Positions 3,576 to 34,202 of a stretch of 35,404 nucleotides of DNA are shown one piece after another. This stretch comes from Arcicella aurantiaca (lineage in GTDB: Bacteria > Bacteroidota > Bacteroidia > Cytophagales > Spirosomataceae): NCBI RefSeq assembly GCF_003148625.1, contig NZ_QGGO01000043.1:1-35404 (forward strand), written 5' to 3'. Positions within the stretch are counted from its first letter, which is position 1. Each line of letters starts with the position of its first letter. Under the pieces are notes generated by a model. It saw only the letters and a list, made by a program, of their open reading frames with translations. It did not search any database and had not been told where the DNA came from. Both the position numbers and the translations under genes were made by a program.

Positions 3576-3599
3576 AACATAGACTAAAGTCTGTGCTAC
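3576..3599. repeat. REP-like palindrome inside the operon
   Basis: AGACTAAAGTCT is a perfect 12-base palindrome, extended as CATAGACTAAAGTCTGTG and ended by CTAC (GTAG on the minus strand). It occupies nearly the whole 38-base gap between the ATPase and permease genes. The hairpin has no T-tract, so it could tune the transcript level or protect the upstream mRNA rather than fully terminate. Confidence 0.7.
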
Positions 3600-3608
3600 C
3601 CGAAAAAT

Positions 3609-4427
3609 ATGAACAATTCATTTAACTATACACGGTTTTCTTTACTCGTAAAAAGACAATGGGTAGAGAATAAAAAACTTTTTTTGATGGCAAGTTTTGC
3701 CTTGTTTGGACTGGGCGTAATTTTTTATTCATTAAGCACCAATTGGGAGATTGGACAGATTTCTGATGTAACCCGCCCTATGTTTTTAGTTGGAGGACTA
3801 TATATTGCGGGTTCTTTTTTTACTAATTATTTATTGAAGGATTTTGCAGATAAAAATGCTTCTACAAATTTTTTATTGATACCTGCCTCGCATCTTGAAA
3901 AACTATTGAGTGTCTGTGTGTATTCTTTCTTCGCTTTCCCAATTTTGATTTTTATTATATTTTTTGTCACAGACTACTTTTTTGTGCATTTGGCAAATTC
4001 TGTTCATGCAAGTTTGGTTTTAAAAAATCATATTGTTAATGATAAATCTTGGCAGGAGAATGAATTATGGTATAAGCAAATGTTTGAAAAAACGGATGAT
4101 TTCGTCTATGCACTGATAGGTAGCTGGTTTATTACACAAACATTTACAATGGTTGGTTCTATTATGTTTATCAGATGGTCATATATCAAAACGGCATTTA
4201 TTGGTTTTGCAGTAATTTTGACCCTTATTTTATGCTCAAATTTTGTGATGGGCTTATTGATAGGAGAATTTGACAGAATGCCAGAAAGCAGTAAACATGG
4301 ATTTTATCTACAAGTGAAACCGACCAGAGATTTCTTAGAAATGCTTATAAGAATGGCGATGAAATTTGTTTTTACACCCATTTTACTACTGATTGCTTTT
4401 TTAAAACTTAAAGAAAAACAGGTATAA
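3609..4427 (+). CDS. ABC transporter permease, ABC-2 type
   Basis: A 272-residue hydrophobic protein with about six predicted membrane segments, for example LFLMASFALFGLGVIFYSL (~25-43), MFLVGGLYIAGSFF (~63), FAFPILIFIIFFVTDYFF (~105), the segments around 155 and 185, and FVFTPILLLIAFL near the end. There are two soluble stretches at ~125-155 and ~215-240. It is the membrane partner of the upstream ATPase, and its stop codon is 2 bases before the GntR start, so the two are translationally coupled. No substrate can be assigned. Confidence 0.82.
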   Translation: MNNSFNYTRFSLLVKRQWVENKKLFLMASFALFGLGVIFYSLSTNWEIGQISDVTRPMFLVGGLYIAGSFFTNYLLKDFADKNASTNFLLIPASHLEKLLSVCVYSFFAFPILIFIIFFVTDYFFVHLANSVHASLVLKNHIVNDKSWQENELWYKQMFEKTDDFVYALIGSWFITQTFTMVGSIMFIRWSYIKTAFIGFAVILTLILCSNFVMGLLIGEFDRMPESSKHGFYLQVKPTRDFLEMLIRMAMKFVFTPILLLIAFLKLKEKQV

Positions 4428-4429
4428 CG

Positions 4430-4792
4430 ATGGAATTTCGAGATAATAAAGCCATATACCTCCAAATAGCCGAGTTTATTTGCGAGCGTATTCTGCTGAA
4501 AGAATGGGCGGTGGGGGATAAGATTCCGTCGGTTCGAGAATTGGCAGTTCAATTAGAAGTGAATCCCAATACGGTGGCAAGAACCGTTGAATTTCTCCAA
4601 CAAAAGGACATTATTTTTACTAAAAGAGGTATGGGATATTTTGTATCAGACGAAGCCGTTGAAAAAGTTACGGCTTTTAGAAAGGATGAATTTTTGCAAA
4701 ATGATTTGCCTTTATTCTTTAAAAATATTCAATTGTTAGGAATTGATTTTGAGGAACTTCGTAAAAGATTTGAAGAGTTTAAAGATAGATAA
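4430..4792 (+). CDS. GntR-family repressor, YtrA subfamily
   Basis: A 120-residue regulator with an N-terminal winged helix-turn-helix of the GntR type: IYLQIAEFICERIL, then GDKIPSVRELAVQLEVNPNT and a wing. Only ~50 residues remain after the wing, the short dimerisation tail of the YtrA subfamily, which lacks a large ligand domain. It is the last gene of the ABC operon and probably binds the AGTGTA/TACACT site at 2700. The arrangement differs from Bacillus, where the regulator is first. Confidence 0.9.
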   Translation: MEFRDNKAIYLQIAEFICERILLKEWAVGDKIPSVRELAVQLEVNPNTVARTVEFLQQKDIIFTKRGMGYFVSDEAVEKVTAFRKDEFLQNDLPLFFKNIQLLGIDFEELRKRFEEFKDR

Positions 4793-4913
4793 TTAGGGGT
4801 TGGGTTTTAGGTATTAGGATTTTGATTGGAGAGGTGGTATAATCAAATTATCCACTACTAAGCCTTAAAACCTAAACAGAAATATCTACTTTATGCCAGT
4901 TTTAAATATTCGG

Positions 4914-5240
4914 TGCGTATTTTACGGAAGTCTTCGTTTTGAAAGCTACGGTTTATACACAAATTTATAGAATAAAAAAGCCGTAGGCTTGACCGATTTT
5001 GTAGCGGTGGGTTTTAACCCACCGAAAAAGAAAATGACCATTTTTTGAGTTCCGTAGGAACGGGGCATTTAAAATGGGTCGAGCCTATGGCTCTAAAATG
5101 GCTTTTCGCATCATTTTCGGTGGGTTAAAACCCACCGCTACAAAATTTAACCGAGCCTATGGCTCTAAATCGATATTCAAATACTTGTGTATAAACCGTA
5201 GCCTTCAAAAGGACGACTTCCGTTGAGACTCAGATACGCA
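4914..5240. repeat. Large nested imperfect palindrome (~327 bp)
   Basis: This fills most of the 506-base gap between the GntR gene and 5299. Outer arms (4914-4963 and 5185-5240) share ACGGAAGTC, TTTTGAA and GCTACGGTTTATACACAA in inverted order. Inside are GTAGCGGTGGGTTTTAACCC (5001) and its inverse ending CACCGCTAC (5141), each also a palindrome by itself. The centre carries GTTCCGTAGGAAC and GAGCCTATGGCTC, the latter twice. It is a mosaic of at least four REP-like modules folded around one centre near 5077. The remaining ~110 bases before it (4797-4880) hold a weaker inverted pair built on TTTTAGGT/CCTAAAAC-like words. Confidence 0.8.
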
Positions 5241-5298
5241 ATATCTTTTTTAAATTAGTATTACTCAAAATTTTCGGACAATATTTAACAGAAAAAAT

Positions 5299-5985
5299 AT
5301 GAAAACATCTAATAAATTATTAATCGCTCTTGGAATAGGCCTCATTTTGAGCGTTGTTTCATACGCATTTGTTTTGCGTGGAGCGTACCAAAATGCGGTG
5401 AAACACCCAATTGCAGCAGAAATAAGAGTGCCTCTTAAATCAGTTCAATATCTTAATCTTACTTATAACCGAGAAGTTACTTTTAAGTACGGGAGTAAAT
5501 TTGAGATTGAAATTGATAGAAGTTTAGCGGATTCGTTAATCTTAAATTATAAAAATGATACGCTGAATTTAGACGTAAGGAAAATTGGTTTTGTAACGAT
5601 AATTTCACCTAATTTACCAATCACGAAGTTCATTGATAATAGTGATTTAGATAATAATAGAGAGGTAATGACTTATGGAGACAATAACGGCAAGACTATT
5701 AACATTGACAGCAGTTTTGTGTCAGGAAGTTTTGTAGCTACTTTTCCAAAAAATGGAATTTTGAGATTTTATAAATGCCAGTTGGATAAAATTGACGTAA
5801 AAGGGAAAGAAAATTTGCTTGTGGATATTGAAAAAAGTAACGTAAAACAACTGAATTTGGGCTTAACGAAATTCTCTTCATTAACCATTAATCATTCTCA
5901 AATACAGTCAAAAAATGTGGTTTTGGGCGATAGTTGTAACCTGAGTTTATTAGGAAAAGATACAAGAACTATTTTTTTGAAGTAA
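5299..5985 (+). CDS. Membrane-anchored beta-rich protein, GIN-domain-like
   Basis: A 228-residue protein with one N-terminal membrane segment (KLLIALGIGLILSVVSYAFV, residues 6-25) and no lipobox, so it is probably anchored in the inner membrane and faces the periplasm. The rest is built from short alternating beta-strands (YLNLTY, VTFKYG, FEIEID, LNLDV, LVDIE, LNLGL, LTINHSQI), resembling the right-handed beta-solenoid of the Bacteroidota GIN/DUF2807 'adhesin head' domain. That family match is from pattern only. It follows the ABC-GntR operon but is separated by the 327-bp palindrome, so co-transcription is doubtful. Its 3' end overlaps the convergent gene by 17 bases. Confidence 0.65.
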   Translation: MKTSNKLLIALGIGLILSVVSYAFVLRGAYQNAVKHPIAAEIRVPLKSVQYLNLTYNREVTFKYGSKFEIEIDRSLADSLILNYKNDTLNLDVRKIGFVTIISPNLPITKFIDNSDLDNNREVMTYGDNNGKTINIDSSFVSGSFVATFPKNGILRFYKCQLDKIDVKGKENLLVDIEKSNVKQLNLGLTKFSSLTINHSQIQSKNVVLGDSCNLSLLGKDTRTIFLK

Positions 5986-7030
5986 GCACCAACCATTCTG
6001 CAATAAGTGCCAAACTGTGAGCTTCGCAAGTCCATTGAATATGAAAAAGTGACGAAGAAGCAATTTTGTAAAGCAAAGGATTTTCGTAAGCGGTCAGAAA
6101 ACCCGCAATGAAGAAAGGATAATTTGTATTAATGTCGTTGAGGTTCAAATACTCAACGACATTTTTATTTTTTAAACAGATTTCTAAAACGATTTTATCC
6201 ATTAATGGCAAATTCTTTTTCTGTAAATAATACAAAATGTCTTGCTCTAATTTTTTACGACAAATTTCTAAATCTGGAATATGAAATTTATTCATTAGTC
6301 GCATGACATGGTACATAATTAGTGGCGTGCGAGCGTACTGATGAGCAACTCGAAAAGGTTGTTCAAGATATTGATTTGACAGAATTGTTTGTTGAATGTA
6401 TTTTACGGAATCTTGTCCGTGTTCGTCTAATTCTAAATCGTAAGCAAGCAAGCAATAAAGCATATTTGACATGGCACAAACATCAAATTCGATGTACATA
6501 TTTTTGCCAAACCAAGTTGAGTATGCTTTTAGATTTTTATATTCTGAAAAAGTGTTTTTTATTTGTTTTTTGTAAAGATTTGAGTGTTGTATAAGTTTGT
6601 TTTTTAGCCAATTAGCTTCTTCTTGTGGTTGTTGGGTAGTCAAGTAAATCATGGCGGTATCATCAATGTCATCAGGGATTTTGAAGTAATTGAAACGATG
6701 CAAAATATTACCATGCGGAAAATGTTGCGATGGATTGGTTTGGAAGAAATTATAAGTATTTAAACCATCTTTATTTCTGAAAAGTGGATAGGCGTTTTGT
6801 GCTTTTTTGGTAATGTCTTCTACTAATAATTGAGATTTTGGAGATAATTTACCTTTGATATTATTAAGTGTAAAAACGGTAATTGCCGTAAAAAAGACAT
6901 TGGTATCAGGACGATGATAATGCCAAAAATCATTACTCCGATATGATTCGAAAATACCTTTTGGGAAATATTTTCGATTAGCGGAATCTTGTAAAGATGC
7001 AATTTTTTGTATGAGGTCGTCAGTTGTCAT
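5969..7030 (-). CDS. Alpha-toroid protein with DxDDTA motif (terpene cyclase-like?)
   Basis: A 353-residue helical protein with no signal peptide. Residues 118-129 read IPDDIDDTAMIY, which contains DIDDTA, the catalytic acid motif of class II terpene cyclases (DxDDTA in squalene-hopene and copalyl diphosphate synthases). FDVCAMSNMLYCLLAYD (182-198) looks like a second toroid inner helix. QW repeats and the DDxxD and NSE/DTE motifs of class I enzymes are absent, and it is about half the length of a classical class II cyclase. A single alpha/alpha-barrel domain is plausible. The longest frame begins with GTG at 7051 inside a repeat; the ATG at 7030 is preferred. Function is unknown; the cyclase idea is a motif-based hypothesis. 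Confidence 0.6.
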   Translation of the reverse strand: MTTDDLIQKIASLQDSANRKYFPKGIFESYRSNDFWHYHRPDTNVFFTAITVFTLNNIKGKLSPKSQLLVEDITKKAQNAYPLFRNKDGLNTYNFFQTNPSQHFPHGNILHRFNYFKIPDDIDDTAMIYLTTQQPQEEANWLKNKLIQHSNLYKKQIKNTFSEYKNLKAYSTWFGKNMYIEFDVCAMSNMLYCLLAYDLELDEHGQDSVKYIQQTILSNQYLEQPFRVAHQYARTPLIMYHVMRLMNKFHIPDLEICRKKLEQDILYYLQKKNLPLMDKIVLEICLKNKNVVEYLNLNDINTNYPFFIAGFLTAYENPLLYKIASSSLFHIQWTCEAHSLALIAEWLVLTSKK

Positions 7031-7035
7031 GATAT

Positions 7036-7157
7036 TTTGCCACGAAGGCACAAAGGCTCTAAGTTTTGGTGTTTTACTTCGAAGTCATAAAGGCACAAAG
7101 TTTTTTACGGAAGTTTTTAATTTTCTAATCTTAGAGACTTGGTGTCTTTGTGGCAAA
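7036..7157. repeat. Inverted repeat overlapping a gene end
   Basis: Arms 7036-7063 (TTTGCCACGAAGGCACAAAG...) and 7130-7157 (CTTAGAG...TTTGTGGCAAA) are inverted copies differing at about 4 of 28 positions. The centre holds a further partial copy (GGCACAAAG at 7092). The right arm lies inside the 3' end of the GNAT gene at 7131 and encodes its last residues and stop codon. Confidence 0.75.
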
Positions 7158-7649
7158 TAAATACTTCACCATCGAAGCTTCATCAACGTATTCATTTTCT
7201 GCCATTTTAATCGCTTCTTTTTCTAAACTAAAGAGTTCAAAACCTTCTGAAAGATACAGGTTTTTTGCTCTCTGATTGGTTGCGATGAGTGTTAAGTAAA
7301 TTTGTCGTAATCCTTCGCCTTGTTTAGCTCTTTCGATTAACGCTTGTAATAATTTTCTGCCAAGTCCTAAACCTTTTGCTTTTTCAGAAACATACATTCT
7401 AAATACTAAGCCTCTGTGTTTGAGCTTAATAAATGAATCTCTTTTGAAGCCAACCGTCCCTAATAACTCCCCATTTTCTGAAAATGCTCCGAGTGTAAAA
7501 CTCTCAAAAGTATCTTGTGATGGGAAAACTTCTCCTTCTATATCGGTAGGAGTAACTCTAAAAAATTGAGCTTCTTCTGTAATCGCTTTCGTGAGCAAAT
7601 TGTAATAAGCGTTTATTTCGTGGTCTTCGGTTATGGTTTTTATAAGCAT
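7131..7649 (-). CDS. GNAT-family N-acetyltransferase
   Basis: A 172-residue GNAT protein. The acetyl-CoA pyrophosphate loop is clear in SEKAKGLGLGRKLLQALIER (residues ~98-117), preceded by the beta-4 strand LVFRMYV and followed by IYLTLIATNQRAKNLYLSEGF, the typical motif B. The substrate is unknown. The last eight codons (FATKTPSL) and the stop are made by the arm of a dispersed repeat, so the original C-terminus has probably been replaced; the GNAT core is already complete before that point. It is the first of three GNAT genes on this strand, not obviously related closely to each other. Confidence 0.85.
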   Translation of the reverse strand: MLIKTITEDHEINAYYNLLTKAITEEAQFFRVTPTDIEGEVFPSQDTFESFTLGAFSENGELLGTVGFKRDSFIKLKHRGLVFRMYVSEKAKGLGLGRKLLQALIERAKQGEGLRQIYLTLIATNQRAKNLYLSEGFELFSLEKEAIKMAENEYVDEASMVKYLFATKTPSL

Positions 7650-7712
7650 GGTTTCAATAGGAATTAGGATTTAGCGAATAGGATTTCGTTTTTCATATTC
7701 TCAATCACAGAT

Positions 7713-8177
7713 TTATTGCAAGGGATAGTCCATTTTAATGTCTGTGCGTTCATACAAAGTTGCTCCGATTGGCACTTCAACAAAACCAAGATTGGAATAC
7801 ATGGTAATAGCTGGGATTAGTTTACGGTTTGAGAGCAAATATAAACTTTTGGCATTCCTTTTTTTAGCTTCTTCAATAGAGAAAATACATAACTTTTTAC
7901 CTAAGCCTAATCCTTGGGCTTTGGGAGTTACGCCCATTTTGGCAAGTTCATAAATATCGTCTCCGTCATGAATTAGGGCGGAAGTTCCTACAATTTCATC
8001 GCCTAATTTTGCCAAAAATATTTGCCCACCGTTATTGATAATTTCTTCTGGAGCGTCTAATTGCTCTAAATCGTGTGGTTCAATTTTAAAGAATTTTTCA
8101 ATCCATTCAACGTTAATTTTTTTGAAATCTTCTTTGTAAATGGTTTGATATTCAATGATTTGTATTGATTGTTCCAT
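7713..8177 (-). CDS. GNAT-family N-acetyltransferase
   Basis: A 154-residue GNAT protein. Motif A is visible as ELAKMGVTPKAQGLGLGKKL and motif B as LYLLSNRKLIPAITMYSNLGF, which resembles MarR-associated acetyltransferases that act on small amines or arylalkylamines. A longer frame (to 8207) would start inside the palindromic element at 8183, giving a spurious MTGYKPVLQI prefix, so I use the ATG at 8177 (MEQSIQIIEYQ). The 63-base gap to the downstream GNAT gene has no terminator that I can see. Confidence 0.85.
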   Translation of the reverse strand: MEQSIQIIEYQTIYKEDFKKINVEWIEKFFKIEPHDLEQLDAPEEIINNGGQIFLAKLGDEIVGTSALIHDGDDIYELAKMGVTPKAQGLGLGKKLCIFSIEEAKKRNAKSLYLLSNRKLIPAITMYSNLGFVEVPIGATLYERTDIKMDYPLQ

Positions 8178-8182
8178 GATTT

Positions 8183-8242
8183 GTAGGACAGGTTTGTAAC
8201 CTGTCAAAATTATAATAGATACAGGCTGGAAGCCTATCCTAC
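8183..8242. repeat. GTAG...CTAC REP pair between two GNAT genes
   Basis: GTAGGACAGG (8183) is the inverse of CCTATCCTAC (8233-8242) with one mismatch. Each half is also a hairpin: GACAGGTTTGTAACCTGTC on the left and AGGCTGGAAGCCT (8223-8235) on the right. The element fills the gap between the two GNAT genes almost exactly (8178-8248). Confidence 0.8.
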
Positions 8243-8248
8243 TTTATC

Positions 8249-8734: not shown

Positions 8735-8828
8735 AATTTTAAGCGAAAAGCGAATACGATACTTTTAGTAATTTGTGTTGTTGTTCGCAATGGTTATTTC
8801 AAAATATTTTTCATGTTTATAATTTACT

Positions 8829-8872
8829 TACGGACAAGGCTGTCCGTACTACACAAAGGCTGTCCGTACTAC
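8829..8872. repeat. REP hairpin with 20-base tandem duplication
   Basis: TACGGACA and TGTCCGTA (8829-8848) form a hairpin followed by CTAC; the segment AAGGCTGTCCGTACTACACA is then repeated directly. On the minus strand each unit begins GTAGTACGGACAGCC. The CTA at 8869-8871 is the TAG stop codon of the phzF-like gene. A second pair of this family lies at 23089-23156. Confidence 0.8.
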
Positions 8873-11418: not shown

Positions 11419-11451
11419 AACTTCCCGAAAGTTTTTAACTTTCGGGAAGTT
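11419..11451. repeat. Perfect 15-bp hairpin between two minus-strand genes
   Basis: AACTTCCCGAAAGTT and AACTTTCGGGAAGTT are perfect inverses around TTT. It lies 43 bases downstream of the cytochrome peroxidase-like gene stop (minus strand) and upstream of the YheT-like gene. There is no clear T-tract on the minus strand, so a REP-type hairpin or an imperfect terminator are both possible. Confidence 0.75.
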
Positions 11452-14764: not shown

Positions 14765-15895
14765 ATGAAAATAACTAAACTTTTCACGGGATTATTCATC
14801 TTAATTTCGCATTTTGGCTATACACAGTCGAAAGATTTATTCTTTAAAAATTGGGGAAAAGGAACTTCTCCCGAAGAAATTGGAAAAATAATTTCCGACC
14901 ATTTTGTAGCTTCGCCACATGGACATGGTGGTGGCTCGAATGACTTTAAGTACATCGCTTATCCAGAAGTTTGTGCATGGTATGGTTCTCTTACTTTTGC
15001 CCAATTAACGAAAAATACGGCTTTGAGAGATAGTTTAGTAAAGCGTTTTGATAAACTGAAAACCGAAGAAACCAGCATGATTAACACACCAAACCATGTT
15101 GACCATAGCGTTTTTGGAACAATTCCGCTTGAAATATCTATGCAAGTACCAAACAGAAAACAAGAACGAGATTTAGGATTATTCTTTGCTGATGCTCAGT
15201 GGGTGTCGCCTTTTAGTACGAACGGAAATCCGCAGTCGCAAAAGTATTATGAACAAGGTTTGTCGTGGCAAACTCGTGTTTGGATTGATGATATGTATAT
15301 GATTACGATGATTCAGACGCAGGCATTTAGAGCTACCAAAGACTTGAAATATCTAAATAGAGCAGCCAAAGAAATGGTTTATTATTTGGATAAAATTCAA
15401 CGCCCGAACGGATTGTTTTATCATGCCCCTGACGTTCCATTTTTTTGGGGAAGAGGCAATGGCTGGATGGCAGCAGGTATGAGCGAATTGTTGAGAGTTT
15501 TGCCAAAAAATAATCCTGATTATAACCGAATTATGACGGGTTATAAAGTGATGATGAATAGTTTGTTGCAATATCAGGCGGAAGATGGAATGTGGAAACA
15601 ATTGGTTGATGACCCACAATCTTGGGCTGAAACTTCAGGAACAGGAATGTTTACTTTTGCAATGATAACAGGGGTGAAAAATGGCTGGCTTGATGCTAAA
15701 ACTTTTGGCCCTGCGGCAAGAAAAGGGTGGTTGGCTCTTATAAAATACATTAACGCCAACGGTGAAATCACAGATGTTTGTGAAGGTACTAACAAAAAGA
15801 ATGACCGTCAGTATTATTATGACCGTAAAAGAAAAACAGGCGATAATCACGGACAAGCCCCTATTTTGTGGTGTGTGTCGGCATTTTTAAGGTAG
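14765..15895 (+). CDS. GH105 unsaturated rhamnogalacturonyl hydrolase
   Basis: A 376-residue protein with a signal peptide (MKITKLFTGLFILISHFGYT). It matches the GH88/GH105 (alpha/alpha)6-barrel family: WIDDMYMI (173-180) carries the catalytic Asp pair region, and FFWGRGNGWMAAGMSELL (227-244) is diagnostic, with DGMWKQLVDDP and ETSGTGMFTFA further on. It removes the unsaturated galacturonyl residue from rhamnogalacturonan-I fragments made by a lyase, in the periplasm. Together with the GH106 enzyme at 18159 it points to use of plant pectin. The stop TAG is provided by the end of the palindromic element at 15892. Confidence 0.9.
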   Translation: MKITKLFTGLFILISHFGYTQSKDLFFKNWGKGTSPEEIGKIISDHFVASPHGHGGGSNDFKYIAYPEVCAWYGSLTFAQLTKNTALRDSLVKRFDKLKTEETSMINTPNHVDHSVFGTIPLEISMQVPNRKQERDLGLFFADAQWVSPFSTNGNPQSQKYYEQGLSWQTRVWIDDMYMITMIQTQAFRATKDLKYLNRAAKEMVYYLDKIQRPNGLFYHAPDVPFFWGRGNGWMAAGMSELLRVLPKNNPDYNRIMTGYKVMMNSLLQYQAEDGMWKQLVDDPQSWAETSGTGMFTFAMITGVKNGWLDAKTFGPAARKGWLALIKYINANGEITDVCEGTNKKNDRQYYYDRKRKTGDNHGQAPILWCVSAFLR

Positions 15896-16005
15896 AGACG
15901 TTGCCTGCAACGTCTTTATGTTACCTGCAACATTAGATTTTACTGATGTGAAAATCTAATGTTGTATCTTGTTTTACCCCAAGACGTTGCAGGCAACGTC
16001 TCTAC
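15892..16005. repeat. 114-bp GTAG...CTAC double palindrome ending two genes
   Basis: Arms 15892-15916 and 15981-16005 (GTAGAGACGTTGCCTGCAAC-GTCTT) are perfect 25-base inverses; each arm also forms its own hairpin (GACGTTGC/GCAACGTC). Nested inside, CAACATTAGATTTT and AAAATCTAATGTTG are perfect 14-base inverses. It spans the whole gap between two convergent genes. TAG at 15893-15895 stops the plus-strand gene and CTA at 16002-16004 stops the minus-strand gene. It should also act as a bidirectional terminator hairpin. Confidence 0.92.
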
Positions 16006-17984: not shown

Positions 17985-18034
17985 GTAGTGGCGTATAGCA
18001 TACGCCAACTTGTATGCTGGCTATACGCCACTAC
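17985..18034. repeat. GTAG...CTAC REP pair, GTAGTGGCG family, copy 1
   Basis: GTAGTGGCGTATAGC (17985) and GCTATACGCCACTAC (ending 18034) are perfect 15-base inverses. The left half also folds by itself (GGCGTAT/ATACGCC). Another copy lies at 34142-34202. This copy is in the space between the divergent YgiB-like and GH106 genes. Confidence 0.88.
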
Positions 18035-21001: not shown

Positions 21002-21102
21002 AGTCGCTCGCCTCTTGCGAGTGACGACTATTATCAGGCTTCCAGCCTAAGACTTTGGCAAGATGCCAATTAATAGTCGTCACTCGCCAGAGGCAAGCGA
21101 CT
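21002..21102. repeat. 101-bp palindrome between convergent genes
   Basis: The 32-base arms AGTCGCTCGCCTCTTGCGAG... (from 21002) and their inverse (to 21102) differ at two positions. The centre holds the palindromic word AGGCTTCCAGCCT (21036-21048), also found in the element at 8183. Half of the arm (GTCGTCACTCGCC with GCAAGCGACT) recurs at 31380. It lies between the convergent GH106 and DUF2461 genes. Confidence 0.88.
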
Positions 21103-23017: not shown

Positions 23018-23088
23018 GATGATGTATTTGTTTAGTTTAACGAAACTAAAACATAAATCTTACCAAACTGATTTTGAGCTTGTTAAAA

Positions 23089-23156
23089 AATGTTAAACTA
23101 CGGACAAGGCTGTTGGTGTTGCACTAAAAATAATGTTAAACTACGGACAAGGCTGT
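23089..23156. repeat. Tandem copy of ACGGACAAGGCTGT repeat
   Basis: AATGTTAAACTACGGACAAG-GCTGT occurs twice, at 23089-23113 and 23132-23156, a direct repeat with a 43-base period. The second copy forms the full ACGGACA/TGTCCGT hairpin, while in the first the right arm is degraded. It is the same family as 8829-8872. It lies between the two small exported protein genes. Confidence 0.8.
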
Positions 23157-23252
23157 CCGTGTTACACATAACAAATGTAGCGAAACCCAATGAGCTTCGC
23201 TACAAATCATCCTTAAACCAAAACTAAATAGATAATATGTTCTAAAAATGTC

Positions 23253-25985: not shown

Positions 25986-26903
25986 ATGAAAACACAAGAA
26001 ACCATCACAAAAACACTCATGGAAAGGCTCTGGGAGGGCTATTGCCAACGAGTAACTTATGCTAAACAATATTCAGAAATGGTACTTGCACAAGGTGGAA
26101 ATGTTGTAAATGACCATTGTGCTTTCCGAACATTTAACACTCATACGGGTGGACAACCTGCGGGTATTCGTGCTATCGAGGAAGTTTTGGAGGCTTTGGG
26201 TTATGAGAAAATTTCACCGTATAGTTTTCCCTCAAAACACTTAAACTCTTTTCATTATCAACACCCGACTAACATCAATTTTCCGAAATTTTTTGTAACT
26301 CAATTGGAAGTAAAAGAATTGTCGGAAGAAGCACAAAGTTTGATAAATGAAGCCGTAAAAGATACGCCTGATTTATTAGCTGGCGAGCCTCGACAATTAT
26401 TAGCAACGCTCAAACAAAATAAGGAACTCATCAGTGCGGAGGCTGACAGACTGGTGGAAGCTTTGGTGAAATTCTTTGCTCGTCCGTGGAAACCTGCCAA
26501 AAAAGAAACCATTTTGGCTTTAAATAGTGAGTCGCAGTTTGCTTCGTGGACTTTGTTGCACGGGAATTCTGTCAACCATTTTACGGCATACATCAATTAT
26601 CAAAATGTACCTGCTTGGGGTGATATTGAGCAAACTATGGCAGTTTTGAAAGAGGCAGGAATTCCGATAAAACCCGAAATTGAAGGTCTGAAAGGTAGTA
26701 AACTTCGCCAAAGTTCTACCCAAGCTATTGATGAAGATTGCCCTGTCATTGATGCAGATGGTTCAGAAACTACTCTTCGTTGGTCGTATGCTTATTATGA
26801 ATTGGCTGAACGTGGTTATCTTGAAACTGACGGAAAGAAAATTTGGTTTGACGGCTTTTTAGGCGAACAAGCAACCAATCTTTTTGAAATGACTAAAAGG
26901 TAG
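25986..26903 (+). CDS. hglS: 2-oxoadipate dioxygenase/decarboxylase (DUF1338, HglS)
   Basis: A 305-residue DUF1338 protein. VVNDHCAFRTFNTHTGGQPA carries the first metal His, and FTAYINYQN and the region VIDADGSETTLRWSYAYYELAERG near the C-terminus match the family. HglS converts 2-oxoadipate to D-2-hydroxyglutarate in lysine degradation. It fits the adjacent ALDH7 enzyme, whose product 2-aminoadipate becomes 2-oxoadipate after transamination; no aminotransferase gene is in the window. The stop codon TAG is part of the GTAG end of the element at 26900. Confidence 0.9.
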   Translation: MKTQETITKTLMERLWEGYCQRVTYAKQYSEMVLAQGGNVVNDHCAFRTFNTHTGGQPAGIRAIEEVLEALGYEKISPYSFPSKHLNSFHYQHPTNINFPKFFVTQLEVKELSEEAQSLINEAVKDTPDLLAGEPRQLLATLKQNKELISAEADRLVEALVKFFARPWKPAKKETILALNSESQFASWTLLHGNSVNHFTAYINYQNVPAWGDIEQTMAVLKEAGIPIKPEIEGLKGSKLRQSSTQAIDEDCPVIDADGSETTLRWSYAYYELAERGYLETDGKKIWFDGFLGEQATNLFEMTKR

Positions 26904-27012: not shown

Positions 27013-27405
27013 ATGCAAAGATTTTATGATTTAGAAGCTTGGAAATTAGCAAGAGAATTAAAAAATGAGGTTGCAAGAATTGCTAAAAGATTTCCTACTG
27101 AAGAGCGTTATGCCTTAATCTCTCAAATAATTCGTTCTTCAAGGTCGGTTACTGCGAATATTTCAGAAGGTTATGGAAGAAATAATTATAAAGAAACGAT
27201 ACACTTTTGCCGTATAGCAAGAGGTTCATTGGAAGAGACGCTAAATCACTTGATTGATGCTTTTGACGAAGAATACATTACGAATGAAGAGTTAAAGATT
27301 CTTAAAGAAAAAGTTGATGTTTGTCTCAAAGTTTTAAATGGATATATAGGTTATTTAAGAAAAAATCAAAAGAACAAAGGAAAAAAAGATGATGATGATT
27401 TATAA
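27013..27405 (+). CDS. Four-helix-bundle protein (S23 / 23S rRNA intervening-sequence type)
   Basis: A 130-residue helical protein. The N-terminus (FYDLEAWKLARELKNEV), then SLISQIIRSS-like packing (ALISQIIRSSRSVTANISEG), FCRIARGSLEETLNHL and a C-terminal helix are the four-helix-bundle pattern of the family first seen in 23S rRNA intervening sequences and related to the Avd proteins of retroelements. It ends in a charged tail (KKDDDDL). The gene stands alone in a metabolic operon, bracketed by CCCTAAATCCC repeats, and is not near rRNA. Function unknown. Confidence 0.92.
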   Translation: MQRFYDLEAWKLARELKNEVARIAKRFPTEERYALISQIIRSSRSVTANISEGYGRNNYKETIHFCRIARGSLEETLNHLIDAFDEEYITNEELKILKEKVDVCLKVLNGYIGYLRKNQKNKGKKDDDDL

Positions 27406-28514: not shown

Positions 28515-28577
28515 GATAGACCACAGGTTAAGCAGATGTTATTCTTTAATGTTAACTCTATTTAACTGTGGTCTATC
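28515..28577. repeat. GACCACAG-family palindrome between convergent genes
   Basis: GATAGACCACAGGTTAA (28515) and TTTAACTGTGGTCTATC (28577) are inverses with about two differences. It occupies the entire space between the dehydrogenase gene and the convergent PQQ-type gene. It shares the GACCACAG word with 25796 and 14497. Confidence 0.8.
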
Positions 28578-28580
28578 ATT

Positions 28581-29921
28581 TTATTGCATAACAAGATTCC
28601 CACTCATTTTCAATAGCTTTTGATTTTCTATAATTAGTTTAGAATTTTTGGGAATATTAACCTGCGTATTGACCACACATTCACCGCCCGAAATGGGTTT
28701 TATCGTGATAATGGTATTCAGCAAAGAACTTGATGGCGGAACGGTATTATTGCTCCAATTGCTTGGGTCTGTCCAATTTCCATTCCCGATGAAAGTATAT
28801 AAAACGGTATCATCAGACTGTACTCGGTAAATATTGCCGTTAAGAGATGTCACAAATAATTCTCCATCTTCTGTTTCTCCAAAATCCGAAATGGTATTTG
28901 GCGATATTATTTGCGAGGAAATATTATAGCTATAAGTCAACGAATCAAACTTGATTTTGAACAATTTTCCCGAGTAAAAATCAACCCCAAAATAGTATCC
29001 TTTCATCGAATTAAATATTTCGCCACGATATACCGTACCGCCAATAATTGACGAACCTACACTTGGATTTGGATACGCCACAACGGGAAATCTGTAATTT
29101 GAAATAGCTCCACATCCCGTTGTATTGTAAGGATTATTGCCTTCATAACATCGCCAGCCGTAATTTGTGGCTAAAGAATCTCGGTGACTTCGGTTGATTT
29201 CCTCAAAAGCATTTTGCCCCACATCGCCAATCCACATATCGCCTGTAAGTCGGTCAAAATTCCAACGAAAGGGATTTCTCAGTCCATACGCCAAAATTTC
29301 ATTGCCAAAAGGATTACCCGACGGAATACTGTAAAATGGCGGATTTTCGGAAATATTTACGTTGAAACGGAGAATTTTTCCGAGCAGTACATTCGTGTTT
29401 TGAGCATTATTGTTGGGGTCGCCACCGCCACCACCGTCGCCCGTAGAAAGATACAAATAGCCATCTTTCCCAAAGCGTAAAGTTCCGCCATTGTGATTGC
29501 TATTGGTAGGGTGAGGAATCGTAATGACGATTTTTTTAGAAGCTACATTAGCCACGTTTACATCATTACTTACTTGATAACGAGCTACTTCCAAATCTCC
29601 CGAAATATTGGTATAATAAACAAAGAAAAGTCCATTGGTTTTATATTGCGGATGAAAACACATACTGAGTAAGCCTTGTTCTCCGCCAGATTGGATATTT
29701 GTTACCGTTAAGAAAGTGCCTAAATTATTGAAATTTTTATCAAAAACTTTGATAACTCCCGCTTTTTGAGGAATAAAAATCCTACTTGTTCCATCACCTG
29801 CATTGATAAATTGCATGGGTTGAGATAGCCCCGTAATGACCGATTTTAAGGAGATATTAGGTTGAGCAAAAAAAGAGAAACTCAACAATAGTAAAGCAAA
29901 AAGAAGGAAAATCTTTTTCAT
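28581..29921 (-). CDS. PQQ-dependent sugar dehydrogenase-like secreted protein
   Basis: A 446-residue protein with signal peptide MKKIFLLFALLLLSFSFFAQ. The bulk is a soluble glucose/sorbosone dehydrogenase-type beta-propeller: GLSMCFHPQY-like blade (EQGLLSMCFHPQY), HNGGTLRFGKDGYLYLSTGD, GLRNPFRWNFD and GDVGQNAFEEIN. NYGWRCYEGN supports the family. A C-terminal ~75-residue beta module (SNNTVPPSSS to KLLKMSGNLVMQ) follows. I do not see a type IX secretion tail. The start at 29921 is chosen because the signal peptide begins there; the longer frame to 29972 adds a non-signal prefix. Confidence 0.88.
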   Translation of the reverse strand: MKKIFLLFALLLLSFSFFAQPNISLKSVITGLSQPMQFINAGDGTSRIFIPQKAGVIKVFDKNFNNLGTFLTVTNIQSGGEQGLLSMCFHPQYKTNGLFFVYYTNISGDLEVARYQVSNDVNVANVASKKIVITIPHPTNSNHNGGTLRFGKDGYLYLSTGDGGGGGDPNNNAQNTNVLLGKILRFNVNISENPPFYSIPSGNPFGNEILAYGLRNPFRWNFDRLTGDMWIGDVGQNAFEEINRSHRDSLATNYGWRCYEGNNPYNTTGCGAISNYRFPVVAYPNPSVGSSIIGGTVYRGEIFNSMKGYYFGVDFYSGKLFKIKFDSLTYSYNISSQIISPNTISDFGETEDGELFVTSLNGNIYRVQSDDTVLYTFIGNGNWTDPSNWSNNTVPPSSSLLNTIITIKPISGGECVVNTQVNIPKNSKLIIENQKLLKMSGNLVMQ

Positions 29922-30007
29922 GTCAATGATGTGTTTTGAAATACAATCAAATATACGAAGCATGATTGGCAATAGATTTTCCGATTACTCATTGTGAAAT
30001 ATTGATT

Positions 30008-30910
30008 CTATAAATTCTTCTCCGCAAAAGAAATGATATGGTCTATGGTTTCTGTCCAAGCAGACCAATCGTGGGTTTGGTCAGGGTAAAAATAATGTTC
30101 GTTACAAGCCAATTTTTTAGTTACGGTTAGTTTGGCGGTCATTGATTGCTCAGTTGTAATAATATTGTCTTTTCCACCGTAAAATAAAATGGTTGGAATT
30201 TTTCCCAAATTTGCATGATAAATGGGACTTGCATTTTGATATTCTTCAGGAGCTTGACTGTACGGTTTGCCAATAACTTGCTGAATATCAGCTCCAATAA
30301 TGCCTGTTCTGATTTCGGGGCTGGTAAGATTTAGTGGAGGGACAATGCCCGCAATGCCTGATACTAAATGGTCGTCATCGGCAGAACTGGTGTATAAAAG
30401 AGCCAAATGTCCGCCCGAACTTAAGCCAACTAAATAAAATTCATTGCCAATTCCCAATGACTTTGCATCGTTTTGAAGTTTGTGTAATAAAGTACCAATA
30501 TCAGCCACTTGTTCACGAAACGTTACGCCCGAACCGACACTTGCTAAACGATAATTAGCATTAACAATGGCACAATTTACACGTCGATTTTTCAAATCTG
30601 TTACCAAAAAATTGAGCGTATTTTTATCACTATATCGCCAAGCTCCACCATGAAGAAGCACAATAACAGGACTTTGAGAATTGCAGGTACTTGGTAGCGA
30701 AATATCGTATTTTTGGTATGGACTTGTGCCATAAGACAAATTAGTTTTGTCTTCGTAAGATAAATTTGATGTGGTAATATCCGTTGTTTTTTCAGGAATA
30801 ATTAAGGTCAAGGGGTCTTTACTACAACCCGAAAAAAAGAAACTTATAAAGATTCCTAAAATGGAAATTACGCCACTTTTGCGGATAGAAAATATAGAAG
30901 ATTTCTGCAT
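30008..30910 (-). CDS. Alpha/beta-hydrolase lipoprotein (carbohydrate esterase-like)
   Basis: A 300-residue protein with a lipoprotein signal (VISILGIFISFFFSGC, lipid Cys 29). It belongs to the BD-FAE/kynurenine formamidase-like group: HGGAW (87-91) for the oxyanion hole, nucleophile S164 in GLSSGG, Asp248 in YGGKDN and His280 in DQTHDW complete the triad. Such enzymes deacylate or defeluoylate polysaccharides or small esters. It lies upstream of the sugar-dehydrogenase-like gene on the same strand with an 86-base gap, so they may be co-transcribed. Confidence 0.85.
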   Translation of the reverse strand: MQKSSIFSIRKSGVISILGIFISFFFSGCSKDPLTLIIPEKTTDITTSNLSYEDKTNLSYGTSPYQKYDISLPSTCNSQSPVIVLLHGGAWRYSDKNTLNFLVTDLKNRRVNCAIVNANYRLASVGSGVTFREQVADIGTLLHKLQNDAKSLGIGNEFYLVGLSSGGHLALLYTSSADDDHLVSGIAGIVPPLNLTSPEIRTGIIGADIQQVIGKPYSQAPEEYQNASPIYHANLGKIPTILFYGGKDNIITTEQSMTAKLTVTKKLACNEHYFYPDQTHDWSAWTETIDHIISFAEKNL

Positions 30911-31058
30911 TAGTCTGTTGTGATTGATGTGTTTAAATTATCTACACAAAATTGAGGTAGATAACACATAATCACAATCACATCTTTGGGTAGTTAAGCT
31001 CGTTTTCCTATACCCTAATGATGTGATAAGCCTTCTGGTTTTTTAGAAAATACTTGAT

Positions 31059-31593
31059 TGGTTCAAGCGTCCACGCTTGAATCATTGGGGTTAGAAAATA
31101 CCTTTCCAACTTTCTTCCAATCTGTAGCCACAATGGCGATTAGTATTTCAAGAATTGCTTCCATGATGAGGTTGATTCTGGCTGGTTCAAGCGTGGACTG
31201 ATTGGTTCGAGCGTCCACGCTTGAACCAGTGGTGATAATAGCTTACGAATTCTCGTGTGGTTCAGCGTCTTCTTACTGGTTCGAGCGTCCACGCTTGAAC
31301 CAGTAGGGTTGGCACTTGTCAATAAGGGTTCAAGCGAGGACGCTTGAACCAGTGGGTGAGGACGCTTGAACCAGTGGGGTAGTCGTCACTCGCCTTTAAG
31401 CAAGCGACTGATGAAAAAACTTATTCTTTAATTACAATCGTTTCCCATCCAACTTACTGGTTCAAGCGTCCACGCTTGAACCAGTGGTGATAATAGTTTA
31501 CGAATTCTCGTGTGGTTCAGCGTCTTCTTACTGGTTCAAGCGTCCACGCTTGAACCAGTAGGGGCGGGGGATTCAAGCGAGGACGCTTGAACC
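31059..31593. repeat. Cluster of GGTTCAAGCG palindromes with a duplicated block
   Basis: The 700-base gap between the esterase and HNH genes holds about nine copies, seven of them complete, of palindromes GGTTCAAGCG-TCC-ACGCTTGAACC (or with GAGGACGC in the centre). A 106-base block containing two palindromes and the spacer TGGTGATAATAGCTTACGAA is repeated directly at 31203-31308 and 31458-31563, differing at about three positions. A half copy of the 21002 family (AGTCGTCACTCGCC) sits at 31380. There is no gene; a 60-codon frame here is a by-product. Confidence 0.92.
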
Positions 31594-31610
31594 ATTGGAT
31601 TTTTATAATA

Positions 31611-32618
31611 TTAGTCAAATTTCAGTGGTAAATAATCTTCACTAACTCCTGTCCCCCAATTAATATCACGGTTGTCTCTAATTTCCATAAATTTGCGAAG
31701 TCCTGGATAAGGAAAAACCAATATTTCTTCATGTCTATATTCGACTCTGTATGTCCGCCAAGACATATCCATAAAAGGGCCAACTTCAATTAATAAAACA
31801 CCCTCTTTAATTCTAAAACTTGGTACTAATTGTTGTCTGACTTTGTCGAAAAGATAATTGGTAGCTCTTGTTAACTCTAATGTTAAGTCGTAAATAAGTT
31901 CAATATGATACATATATTTTCCTAACAAATGATTATAAAGTTCATCATCCCACCTATCAATTTTGTAAAATTTGTTTGTGCAGATTTGTTCACTATTTCT
32001 AACATCTTCTACATATTTGTCAAATACATTAAGTAGGTCATTTAAAACATTTTTTAAATTAAATAATGCGTTTTCAAGTTCAGGATAACGCTTATACCAA
32101 ACTCTTGAAATGATATAATTGATTAGTTCTCGAAGTTTGTTATATTGCTCCTTTAATATTTTAGGGTTGTCACTACTTAACAACCAAGATGTCCAAGCTT
32201 TATAATTTTCTATATCCGCAAGTTTCAAAAATTCGTCAATGTATGAAGCATAAACTTCATCTTCTCTTTGTTTAGTATTATCAAATATTAAATTTTGTTT
32301 AACCCAATTCTCATGATTTCTTTTGGTGTCAAGCAATAGTTTAATTGGAAATCTATCTGGGTAGTCGTCTATGACTTTGTGATGAACACTACACATTAAA
32401 ATTAGATTGTCATATTTATCCCGTTGCTCAGGTGTCAGAGGCGAAATGCCTCTTGGTCCATCTTTTTCTCTTGCGACTATATGTGCTTCCTCACCAACAA
32501 CAGAAATGTCATCAGTTTCGGAAATGTCCATAACAAGTTCTTTTTTGCAGCCTGGGAAAGCACAGATGTTTCCCGAACGTCCCCAAAGCATTTTATGTGT
32601 TCTAAGCTGAATACCCAT
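31611..32618 (-). CDS. Stand-alone HNH nuclease with unknown helical C-terminus
   Basis: A 335-residue protein. The N-terminal HNH fold has a Cys pair C19 and C24 (CAFPGC), the first His in EEAHIVARE (H46), then DNLILMCSVHHKVID with N71, C76, H79, H80: a zinc-stabilised beta-beta-alpha-metal nuclease core. Residues ~120-335 are mostly helical and unlike any family I can name. Nucleases with this CxxxxC, AHI, CxxHH pattern serve as effectors in several anti-phage systems and as fusion partners; here it is alone. It lies directly after the palindrome cluster. The role is open. Confidence 0.8.
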   Translation of the reverse strand: MGIQLRTHKMLWGRSGNICAFPGCKKELVMDISETDDISVVGEEAHIVAREKDGPRGISPLTPEQRDKYDNLILMCSVHHKVIDDYPDRFPIKLLLDTKRNHENWVKQNLIFDNTKQREDEVYASYIDEFLKLADIENYKAWTSWLLSSDNPKILKEQYNKLRELINYIISRVWYKRYPELENALFNLKNVLNDLLNVFDKYVEDVRNSEQICTNKFYKIDRWDDELYNHLLGKYMYHIELIYDLTLELTRATNYLFDKVRQQLVPSFRIKEGVLLIEVGPFMDMSWRTYRVEYRHEEILVFPYPGLRKFMEIRDNRDINWGTGVSEDYLPLKFD

Positions 32619-32976
32619 TTTCTGTTAATTGTAAGTTGCTGGTGTCTGTTAGCATAGTATGTAACTCCTAAATTTACGAAAGTTTTGTTGTATTCTTCTT
32701 GTCGTACTTTTTGTATTATTAAAAGCTTGATAGATTTTTTATATAAGATTCCTATAACAAACATACCAATTTCCCCAACATCCCCAATTCCAATTTATCA
32801 AACGGTAAAAACACAACCTATCAAAATCTTGCCTAACTTAGAGCAAATAAATATGGGCTTTTTGTGAGATAGAGATTCGCCAATTCTTCAAGAGTTGGCG
32901 AATCTCTGTCCACCGTCTAAACTATAAATAATTGGGAGGTAAAACCTAATCCCAAATCACTAAAACCTTTGCCAAA
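32619..32976. other. 358-bp non-coding gap upstream of HNH gene
   Basis: The gap holds the hairpin at 32871 and otherwise no gene or promoter that I can defend. A 60-codon frame at 32685 has biased, low-complexity content (PISPTSPIPIYQTVKT) and no start signal. Confidence 0.55.
32871..32907. repeat. Perfect 13-bp hairpin
   Basis: AGAGATTCGCCAA and TTGGCGAATCTCT are perfect inverses around an 11-base loop whose inner bases (CTT/AAG) can extend the fold. It lies 70 bases before the dipeptide epimerase gene. It lacks a T-run, so it is REP-like rather than a standard terminator. Confidence 0.75.
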
Positions 32977-33996
32977 ATGCAGTTAATCCTTCATCAATTC
33001 AATTTAAAACTTCGTCATACTTTTACCATTACGCACGAGTCTCGTGATGTTCAACCTACGCTTATCGTTGAGCTTCGAGATGGTGATTTTCGTGGTTTTG
33101 GGGAGGCTACCGAAACGCCTTATTATGGCGTAACGATGGCAAAAATGATGGCTCAATTAGAGGCTATCCGTCCGCTTATTGAAAATTATGACCTCCAAAG
33201 TCCAGAACAATTTTGGGCAGATATGCACCCGCACCTCAAAGACGACCATCCTTTTGCTTTGTGTGCGTTAGACATTGCCGCTAATGACCTTTGGGCAAAA
33301 AAACAAGGACAACCTTTGTATAAATTATGGGGTTTAGATGCTTCTAAAAATCCTATTACTGATTATACCATTGGCATTGATACCGTTGAGAAAATGGCTG
33401 AAAAAATGCAGGAGGTGCCGTTTCCACTGTATAAAATCAAATTAGGGACAAAAGACGATATTAAAATTGTTCAAGAACTCCGTAAACATACTGATGCCGT
33501 TTTTAGAGTAGATGCCAACACGGCTTGGGGCGTGGAGGAGACTTTACAAAACGCCATTGCTCTGAAAGAATTGGGTGTAGAATTTATCGAACAACCCATG
33601 AAAGCCGATAATTGGGAAGGCATGAAACGAGTTTTTGCGGAGTCGGTTTTGCCTATTATGGCGGATGAAAGTTGTATCGTGGAGGAAGACGTGGCTCGTT
33701 GTTACGGATTTTTTCATATTATCAACATCAAATTAATGAAATGCGGAGGACTTACACCCGCTCGTCGGATGATTGCACACGCTCATAAATTGGGTTTGAA
33801 AGTAATGGTTGGTTGCATGACGGAATCGAATGTGGGTTGCTCTGCCATTGCCCAATTATTACCACTTTTAGACTATGTGGATATGGACGGAATCCTTTTG
33901 GTGGACGACCAAGTTTCTACGGGTATTACCATTGATTACGGAAAAGTGATTTATGCGGAAGAGAACGGAACGGGAGCTTCTTTAATTGATAGGTGA
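32977..33996 (+). CDS. Dipeptide epimerase, L-Ala-D/L-Glu type
   Basis: A 339-residue enolase-superfamily enzyme. The catalytic lysine pair is KIK (K153, K155), metal ligands are D179 (RVDAN), E205 (FIEQP) and D230 (MADES), the second-face lysine is in INIKLMK (K252), and the specificity Asp lies in DMDG (residues 302-305). These suit the L-Ala-D/L-Glu epimerase (YcjG/YkfB) subgroup, which helps recycle murein peptides. It is the first of two genes (with DUF4846) on the plus strand; the gap between them holds two repeats, so they may be separate units. Confidence 0.92.
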   Translation: MQLILHQFNLKLRHTFTITHESRDVQPTLIVELRDGDFRGFGEATETPYYGVTMAKMMAQLEAIRPLIENYDLQSPEQFWADMHPHLKDDHPFALCALDIAANDLWAKKQGQPLYKLWGLDASKNPITDYTIGIDTVEKMAEKMQEVPFPLYKIKLGTKDDIKIVQELRKHTDAVFRVDANTAWGVEETLQNAIALKELGVEFIEQPMKADNWEGMKRVFAESVLPIMADESCIVEEDVARCYGFFHIINIKLMKCGGLTPARRMIAHAHKLGLKVMVGCMTESNVGCSAIAQLLPLLDYVDMDGILLVDDQVSTGITIDYGKVIYAEENGTGASLIDR

Positions 33997-34036
33997 TAAT
34001 TAATAATTGATAGTTATTGAATGCTAATTTTATCCA

Positions 34037-34123
34037 TCTGAACTATGATTTTTATGATTATTTGATTGTAGGATTCTTGCTTAAAACCCTATCATCTTTA
34101 AATTTTATCAATCATAGTTCAGA
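34037..34123. repeat. Inverted repeat TCTGAACTATGATT
   Basis: TCTGAACTATGATT (34037) and its inverse AATCATAGTTCAGA (34110-34123) flank a less regular AT-rich centre that includes a second ATGATT word. A different family again, in the gap after the epimerase gene. Confidence 0.8.
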
Positions 34124-34141
34124 CAAAATGTAATTCATTAC

Positions 34142-34202
34142 GTAGTGGCGTATGGCATACGCCAATGCTTTGGCAATTTTGACGTATGCTATACGTCACT
34201 AC
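34142..34202. repeat. GTAG...CTAC REP pair, GTAGTGGCG family, copy 2
   Basis: GTAGTGGCGTATGGCATACG (34142) pairs with GTATGCTATACGTCACTAC ending 34202. It has the same end words as the copy at 17985 but a longer, different centre, and lies 28 bases before the DUF4846 start. Confidence 0.85.

What the first reader, a model, noticed from the sequence alone, without database searches (positions are those of the whole stretch)
3576..34202. Many unrelated REP families share GTAG...CTAC ends
Elements at 3596 (CTAC end), 5001-5141, 8183-8242, 8829-8872, 15892-16005, 17985-18034, 34142-34202 and the left end at 26900 carry GTAG at the start and/or CTAC at the end, while the sequences between are unrelated. 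In proteobacteria a GTAG-type tetranucleotide 5' of a hairpin is what RAYT (TnpA_REP) transposases recognise. The same signature on at least six families here suggests several RAYT-like Y1 transposases, each with its own hairpin, at work in one Bacteroidota genome.
Basis: partly seen in the sequence, partly recalled or inferred. Interest (0 to 1): 0.72.

Follow-up and report, generated by a model that had tools for sequence, protein, structure and literature searches.

The report
Hairpin repeats with matching transposase genes
Short mobile-looking hairpin repeats of at least six different sequences, each marked by the letters GTAG or GTAA, are scattered through this bacterium, and for several of them the single-strand transposase gene that probably spread them can be pointed out, including one enzyme class that was reported to have no such repeats.

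Summary
The elements are real. Seven of the eight listed are REPs or inverted REP pairs (REPINs) of six unrelated families; the one at 26900 is not. In 1.24 Mb of the genome GTAG stands 5' of hairpins 44 times against 2.3 expected, and GTAAC is as enriched, so the tag is GTAR. The genome has 12 Y1-transposase-like genes of several lineages; GTAR families R1, R6 and R7 flank three RAYTs of one clade. For R2, R3 and R4 no enzyme was found in this genome; matching or sibling REPs flank RAYTs of congeners. So 'several RAYTs, each with its own hairpin' holds, 'at work' is not shown, and orphans are common. This is known biology (REPtrons; subclasses 2.4 and 2.6 in Bacteroidetes) in a new genome. 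One part looks new: the element at 4978-5167 is a two-hairpin unit tied to an IS200-like TnpA of subclass 1.2, listed in print as having no REP. Round 30 homologues, hairpins with a CC-NNN-GG core are 20-25 times commoner than chance (three or more in 20 loci, none in 5), with GTAR at a fixed 9 or 10 nt after many of them.

The parts
3574..3599 (+). R1 REP, one hairpin with both feet (GTAAC...GCTAC)
   Evidence: congener G006 has a full GTAAC...GTTAC inverted pair at the same site; the window copy looks like it without the middle. RAYT C1:185432 has 8 R1 hairpins within 300 nt.
4978..5167 (.). R5 element: two-hairpin modules facing inwards (small hairpin, 14-15 nt ending in GTAG, 9-bp hairpin), GTAG at 5001 and CTAC ending at 5141
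   Evidence: same module arrayed upstream of the subclass-1.2 TnpA C15:70011.
4924..5223 (.). outer inverted repeat (arms 4924-4962, 5185-5223) round R5; arms resemble palindromes beside congener YHIYNR-lineage Y1 genes
   Evidence: I2; L194, L168; R16.
8183..8242 (.). R2 REPIN, GTAG...CTAC
   Evidence: orthologous pair with stem changes in G002; R2-type hairpins flank RAYT L164 of G002.
8829..8872 (-). R7 REP plus partial duplication
   Evidence: RAYT C10:13277 with three copies.
11419..11451 (.). R12 long palindrome without GTAG
   Evidence: similar copies beside Y1 gene C35:20042.
15892..16005 (.). R4 REPIN; its two TAGs are the stop codons of the two convergent ORFs
   Evidence: 17 forward and 18 reverse tagged units in the genome.
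17985..18034 (.). R3 REPIN, site shared with G002, G005 and G006
21002..21102 (.). R13 palindrome pair, no GTAG
   Evidence: same sequence type in the 57-nt inverted repeat upstream of RAYT C5:198950.
23085..23168 (-). two R7 units, one degenerate, one GTAAC-tagged
23177..23203 (.). 27-nt double-foot element GTAGCGAA...TTCGCTAC
   Evidence: also in G005 (L218:14946); only copy in the 1.24-Mb sample.
31055..31603 (.). R10 array (TGGTTCAAG...CTTGAACCA), mostly untagged; an R13-like unit at about 31378-31410
   Evidence: R10 units near RAYT C19:23962.
34142..34202 (.). R3 REPIN

Best explanation
These are REPs and REPINs: non-autonomous single-strand elements, each a GTAR foot plus a hairpin, alone or as an inverted pair, multiplied in the past by Y1 (HUH, one-tyrosine) transposases that know them by foot and hairpin. 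Several enzyme lineages with different palindromes coexist in this genus (probably Spirosomataceae): (a) a 2.7-like RAYT clade with GTAR hairpins (R1, R6, R7 here; R2 in a congener); (b) a 2.4-like lineage, not found in this genome, with GTAG REPs of R3 and R4 type; (c) 2.6-like RAYTs with palindromes lacking GTAG (R10, R13); (d) YHIYNR proteins with long palindromes (R12); (e) an IS200-like subclass 1.2 TnpA with the two-hairpin R5/R8 unit. Shown: sequences, copy numbers, orientation, neighbourhoods, tree, conserved residues, differing occupancy of the same sites. Inferred: that the neighbouring enzyme moved the repeats, by ssDNA cleavage guided by the foot; that orphan families are relics; the subclass names, which rest on Table 1 motifs of PMC6006769.
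For: GTAR enrichment. Whole-genome R4 search: 35 tagged units, of which 28 form 14 pairs, all feet-out; 0 in the reversed-pattern control. Same-family neighbours within 450 nt with a tag on both: 38 feet-out, 4 feet-in, 12 tandem, of 54; 26 further pairs lacked a clear tag. 144 of 157 units lie outside ORFs. RAYT neighbourhoods; Runella and Persicitalea RAYTs have hairpins similar to R7. The nine RAYTs labelled as GTAR-associated form one clade, support 83/97, below the tool's starred level. Residues W, Q and R104 type in 8 of 9 (the ninth has W-E and the R) and in L175; none of 16 WQ-bearing short-lineage proteins has the R. Site occupancy differs between species at 3574, 7050, 8183 and 15892.
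Against: Six of nine GTAR families have no RAYT within 1.2 kb in this assembly (one of them, R5, has the IS200-type TnpA). No clean empty site at high identity: the nearest congener is 83-91% identical in the aligned pieces. CT, the known TnpAREP cleavage site (PMC8266576, passages), is not enriched next to the tags. Only 3 of 11 NF047646 matches pass the curated cut-off. L175, the R3 link, rests on one gene in one congener and is a long branch of unsure place. R4 has only sibling stems beside enzymes.
Confidence: 0.85

Rival explanations
1. The palindromes are transcription terminators or mRNA stabilisers kept by selection, and the GTAR foot is kept because it offers a stop codon to genes running in.
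For: 40 of 134 tags lie within -4 to +6 nt of the stop of the ORF running into them; random placing gives a mean of 3.5 and a maximum of 10 in 300 draws, other noncoding GTAR 306 of 3541; 18 tags are that stop.
Against: Does not explain identical stems at dozens of loci, arrays round Y1 genes, differing families at one site in related species, or the shared residues of the enzymes. As selection on where copies survive it is compatible with the best explanation.
Confidence: 0.07
2. One or a few RAYTs move all GTAR families regardless of the stem; the six window families need no enzyme of their own.
For: Three GTAR-clade RAYTs against nine GTAR families in this genome; units share the geometry.
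Against: The GTAR-clade RAYTs here and in congeners are each flanked by one stem type, different for most; R2 and R3 stems recur beside RAYTs of congeners.
Confidence: 0.2
3. R5/R8 are ordinary MITE-like relics of an IS200/IS605 insertion sequence, not REPs of a resident enzyme.
For: The TnpA beside R5 is IS200-type (NF033573 79.5 bits over a cut-off of 55); R8 copies are about 180 bp and share a shell with R5.
Against: This genome has two such TnpA genes, the second 42% identical, not identical IS copies; arrays of units, not one pair of ends, stand beside the first; 20 of 30 homologue loci have three or more of the small hairpins.
Confidence: 0.25

Closest known systems
GTAG-tagged REPs and REPtrons (Di Nocera 2013 PMC3733652; Nunvar 2010 PMC2817692)
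   Same: GTAG foot, 6-13 bp stem, inverted dimers, several families per genome, REP-specific RAYT genes, location at gene ends, TAG used as a stop.
   Different: PMC3733652 names Bacteroidetes for CGTC but not for GTAG repeats; here GTAA is as common as GTAG and several families have no enzyme found in the genome.
TnpAREP subclasses 2.4, 2.6, 2.7 (Quentin 2018 PMC6006769)
   Same: 2.4: Cyanobacteria and Bacteroidetes, double-foot REPs, REPs inside the tnpA gene, all seen among L240-L259. 2.6: Bacteroidetes, atypical palindromes, as for C19 and C5. 2.7: Y motif and D100/R101/R104, as for the R1/R6/R7 RAYTs.
   Different: Subclass names are my assignment from Table 1 motifs, not from their HMMs.
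TnpA subclass 1.2 (PMC6006769)
   Same: Y---Q--HH, DH[IV]H, WQ, about 150 aa, low copy, Bacteroidetes.
   Different: Listed there with REP 'no'; here most homologue loci hold specific short hairpins, half of them with GTAR at a fixed distance.
IS200/IS605 ends
   Same: Hairpin plus a tetranucleotide at a fixed distance; read on the other strand the unit is YTAC, 9-10 nt, hairpin (that IS608 cleaves at TTAC is recalled, from no call).
   Different: Units are in arrays and dispersed; I did not find a complete IS.

Membership tests
GTAG REP/REPIN | GTAG (GT[AG]G) foot directly 5' of a hairpin, many copies | tested here: met
   R3 17 of 19, R4 7 of 7 units GTAG in the sample; 35 tagged R4 units in the genome.
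GTAG REP/REPIN | same foot in the largest family R1 | tested here: not met
   52 of 61 R1 units have GTAA, 3 GTAG, 6 none; R1 is REP-like with a GTAA foot.
GTAG REP/REPIN | flanks a RAYT gene (REPtron) | tested here: met
   R1, R6, R7 in this genome; R2 and R3 in congeners; R4 only by sibling stems; R8 not met.
GTAG REP/REPIN | ssDNA binding and cleavage by the cognate enzyme | not testable with these tools
   Needs protein.
RAYT/TnpAREP | HUH and catalytic Y | tested here: met
   H-x-H in 53 of 54, Y in 53 of 54 aligned proteins; C40:9949, not in that set, lacks HUH by eye.
RAYT/TnpAREP | GTAG-recognition residues W94, Q95, R104 (E. coli numbers) | tested here: met
   8 of 9 GTAR-clade proteins, ninth W-E with R; L175 too. 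Placed by motif, not by structure.
TnpA subclass 2.4 | REP inserted in frame in tnpA; double-foot REPs | tested here: met
   L240, L244, L250, in a congener and relatives; the lineage gave no match in this genome at E 1e-10.
TnpA subclass 1.2 | Y---Q--HH, DH[IV]H, WQ, about 148 aa | tested here: met
   YIQNQEEHH, DHVH, WQ, 153 aa.
TnpA subclass 1.2 | reported as without REP (an observation, not a definition) | tested here: not met
   One or more CC-core hairpins in 25 of 30 loci, three or more in 20; GTAR peak.
IS200/IS605 insertion sequence | identical mobile copies with precise ends | tested here: not met
   Two TnpA matches in the genome, 100 and 42% identical to the query.

The most novel reading that the evidence does not exclude
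Subclass 1.2 TnpA, a low-copy IS200-like protein of Bacteroidetes and Cyanobacteria with no reported repeat, has its own REP type: a 5-bp hairpin N3CC-NNN-GGN3 followed, often after exactly 9 (or, in the clade of this genome, 10) nt, by GTAR, in arrays on one or both sides of the gene and, in this genome, dispersed. Here the GTAR also serves as foot of a second hairpin, giving the R5 and R8 families, which share one shell but carry interchangeable inner stems.
Probability: 0.65. Interest if true: 0.62.

Novelty: new variant of a known kind. Interest (0 to 1): 0.5.

Why it matters
It gives a clear case of many REP systems in one Bacteroidota genus, where enzymes and repeats can be paired, and shows orphan REP families whose likely enzymes are found in sister species. 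That makes REP turnover and loss directly testable. If the subclass 1.2 link holds, a group of transposases so far without a substrate gets one, with a built-in test (GTAA or GTAG, fixed spacing), and it sits between IS200 ends and REPs, which bears on how REPs arose from insertion sequences.

Tried and rejected
The 26900 element as a REP: rejected. Rfam at gathering thresholds: only 5S rRNA. Cleavage-site search: CT next to tags is not enriched; flanks are A/T rich, with TT at -4 in 44% of 50 distinct GTAG flanks. R8 as a simple REP: the repeat reaches beyond the hairpins and shares its shell with R5; the two R8 sites searched in congeners gave no two-sided match, so no empty-site comparison. 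R8's exact core occurs 24 times here and in none of 7 congeners, with no Y1 gene known beside it. R9, R11 and R14-R16 were not followed to whole-genome counts. CGTC tag for R13: considered, left open. The stem-pair counts (11 of 14 pairs changed on both sides) are partly circular: the second hairpin and four of five pairs of the first were required when the 20 units were picked; only the outermost pair of the first hairpin was free, and it paired in 19 of 19 distinct rows. A Fisher test used 17 proteins where one search lists 16 and is not used. Against the subclass 1.2 reading: five of 30 loci have no such hairpin and five have one only, which may be chance; the second subclass-1.2-like gene of this very genome (C2:91293) has none in 20 kb round it; GTAR at 7-10 nt was seen in 15 of 30 loci. 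Family counts rest on loose patterns; genes are ORFs of 80 aa or more, not annotations. I did not fold any protein.
Full report
What the window is. The window is the whole of contig C43 of a 5.93 Mb, 70-contig genome. One relative placed in the same family by the genome search (G024) has a contig of the same length, 2,459,477, as one of Persicitalea jodogahamensis, which is in Spirosomataceae, Cytophagales; so the genome is very probably of that family. Its species was not identified.

Observation. Seven of the eight listed elements are GTAR-footed hairpins or inverted pairs of them; they fall into six families (R1 3574, R5 5001, R2 8183, R7 8829, R4 15892, R3 17985 and 34142). The eighth, at 26900, is a low-complexity inverted repeat. 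A survey of all exact hairpins (stem 7 or more, loop 2-5, at least two G or C in an arm) in 1,235,404 bases gave 483 hairpins, 966 sides; the tetramer 5' of the stem was GTAG 44 times (2.3 expected) and TAAC, that is mostly GTAAC, 68 times (3.7 expected), the two highest ratios (18.9 and 18.1; next TAGC 5.4, among tetramers seen 8 times or more). In the 49 stretches not chosen for a RAYT or the window: GTAG 23 and TAAC 45 of 726.

Families. In the same sample 157 units of R1-R9 were found by loose patterns, 135 with a tag; R1 is GTAA (52 of 61), R3 and R4 GTAG (17 of 19, 7 of 7), R5-R7 mixed; R10 has none in 11 of 14. Where two same-family neighbours both had a clear tag (54 pairs), 38 had both feet outside, 4 inside, 12 were tandem. 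R4 has 17 forward and 18 reverse tagged matches (up to one mismatch) in the whole genome, 28 of them in 14 pairs, all feet-out; G005 has 11 matches, G002 has 6, the other five congeners 0; in G026, of the same order, it is a 28-nt double-foot palindrome.

Enzymes. PF01797 finds 7 genes and NF047646 finds 11; together 12 distinct genes. Three pass the REP_Tyr_transpos cut-off and one misses it narrowly; two are IS200-type; one (C40) has lost HUH. Neighbourhoods: R1 with C1:185432 (8 hairpins within 300 nt), R6 with C15:103110 (3), R7 with C10:13277 (3), R10 with C19:23962 (2), R13 with C5:198950, R12 with C35:20042, a GTGG family with C22:94372, which the contig end cuts. At C2:91392, C2:72597, C21:12082 and C40:9949 I recognised no repeat family, only single hairpins or none.

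Congeners. Of the 39 genomes searched, 35 have NF047646 matches, among them all seven congeners, with 2 to 19 each. I fetched 40 stretches round listed congener matches, not all of them. RAYTs of the R1/R6/R7 clade have other GTAR stems there: R2-type beside L164 (G002), a near variant beside L179 (G004), and stems of their own in G001, G003, G004 and G005. A separate lineage, L175, has R3-type stems in G006. Of 20 loci fetched for this lineage from 59 relatives (L240 is L175 itself), I count by eye 17 with GTAG- or GTAA-footed palindromes, many of the form GTAGAGAC...GTCTCTAC like R4, and several with the palindrome inside the gene, in frame. This genome gave no match to that lineage at E 1e-10. 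So R2, R3 and R4 look like orphans here. A tree of 54 proteins puts the nine GTAR-hairpin RAYTs in one clade (83/97, not starred); L175 is a long branch of unsure place. The residues reported for GTAG recognition in E. coli (PMC6006769, section 12 read) are kept in these and in L175 (one has E for Q); of 28 short-lineage proteins 16 have the WQ, and none of the 16 has the arginine.

History at single sites. Against G005 (83-91% identical in aligned pieces), G002, G004, G006 and G001: the 17985 R3 pair is old and shared, with stem changes; at 8183 G002 has the same pair, G005 a different REP, G004 none; at 15892 G005 has R4 and G002 does not; at 7050 only G004 has an R2 pair; at 3574 G006 has a full R1 pair while the window copy looks as if it had lost the middle, leaving a double-foot hairpin, the origin suggested for double-foot REPs in PMC6006769. 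These are comparisons at moderate identity and do not fix insertion boundaries to the base.

Stop codons. Of 134 tags, 40 lie within -4 to +6 nt of the stop of the ORF running into them (random placing 3.5, maximum 10 of 300; all noncoding GTAR 306 of 3541), and in 18 the tag is the stop. PMC3733652 (first part and passages seen) already says that REP ends often provide the TAG stop.

The part that looks new. The same two-hairpin module is arrayed directly upstream of the IS200-type gene C15:70011 and, with other stems, beside its homologues in five other genomes (6 of 6 loci of 60% identity or more; 8 of all 30). Other Y1 loci have 1 in 165 kb, 0 in 69 kb and 1 in 95 kb; 49 random stretches of this genome have 13 in 980 kb, most of them R5 or R8 copies. 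In 30 loci of homologues (of 67 listed matches; one locus a genome) the small hairpin occurs 118 times: three or more in 20 loci, one in 5, none in 5; 5.6 are expected from first-order Markov copies, and CC is by far the commonest of the 16 possible cores. Controls: 3 in 165 kb, 9 in 95 kb, 2 in 69 kb, 27 in 980 kb. GTAR follows at exactly 9 nt in 31 of 155 distinct hairpin sides of the 24 more distant loci (next highest 6), and at exactly 10 nt in 12 of 52 in the six close ones (next highest 2); every hairpin was counted from both sides; 15 of 30 loci have it at 7-10 nt. The protein has the subclass 1.2 signature Y---Q--HH. The second such gene of this genome, 42% identical, has no such hairpin within its 20-kb stretch. 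PMC6006769 (sections read) lists REP 'no' for the subclass; searches for later work (listings only, an open-licence library) showed no other paper on subclass 1.2. The link is by neighbourhood and spacing; no activity is shown.

Papers. PMC6006769: outline, passages, sections 12, 17, 18. PMC3733652: first of eight parts and passages. PMC8266576 and PMC2817692: passages. Others: listings only.

Judgement. The finding is right in kind and mostly known biology; the enzyme census and orphan families are a new instance; the subclass 1.2 unit is, as far as I could check, new.

Noticed in passing
window 15892-16005: Both convergent ORFs end with the TAG of the two REP feet; in G002, without the REP, the second gene ends with its own stop a codon or two further on (read by eye).
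   Followed up: partly
window 31055-31603: Dense array of TGGTTCAAG...CTTGAACCA palindromes with a 112-nt direct duplication; the same palindromes lie near RAYT C19:23962.
   Followed up: partly
G000 C40:9949-10299 (L004): IS200-like protein of 122 aa without HUH motif, perhaps a decayed or repurposed TnpA.
   Followed up: no
window 27013-27405: Small ORF (130 aa) between inverted GGGATTTAGGGG-type repeats; looks like a four-helix-bundle protein (recalled, not searched).
   Followed up: no
G000, 24 exact cores: R8 (CCCCGAAATnnATTTCGGGG) is confined to this species among eight genomes of the genus and has no Y1 gene known beside it, although it shares its shell with R5.
   Followed up: partly
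L244, L250: REPs of the 2.4-like lineage are translated in frame within their own transposase gene between HUH and Y, giving peptides such as VETGHALSL and VETRHCLVS.
   Followed up: partly
L039, L166, L169, L194, L195: Several YHIYNR-type Y1 genes also have long palindromes on one or both sides; by Table 1 motifs they resemble subclass 2.1, which is listed without REPs.
   Followed up: partly
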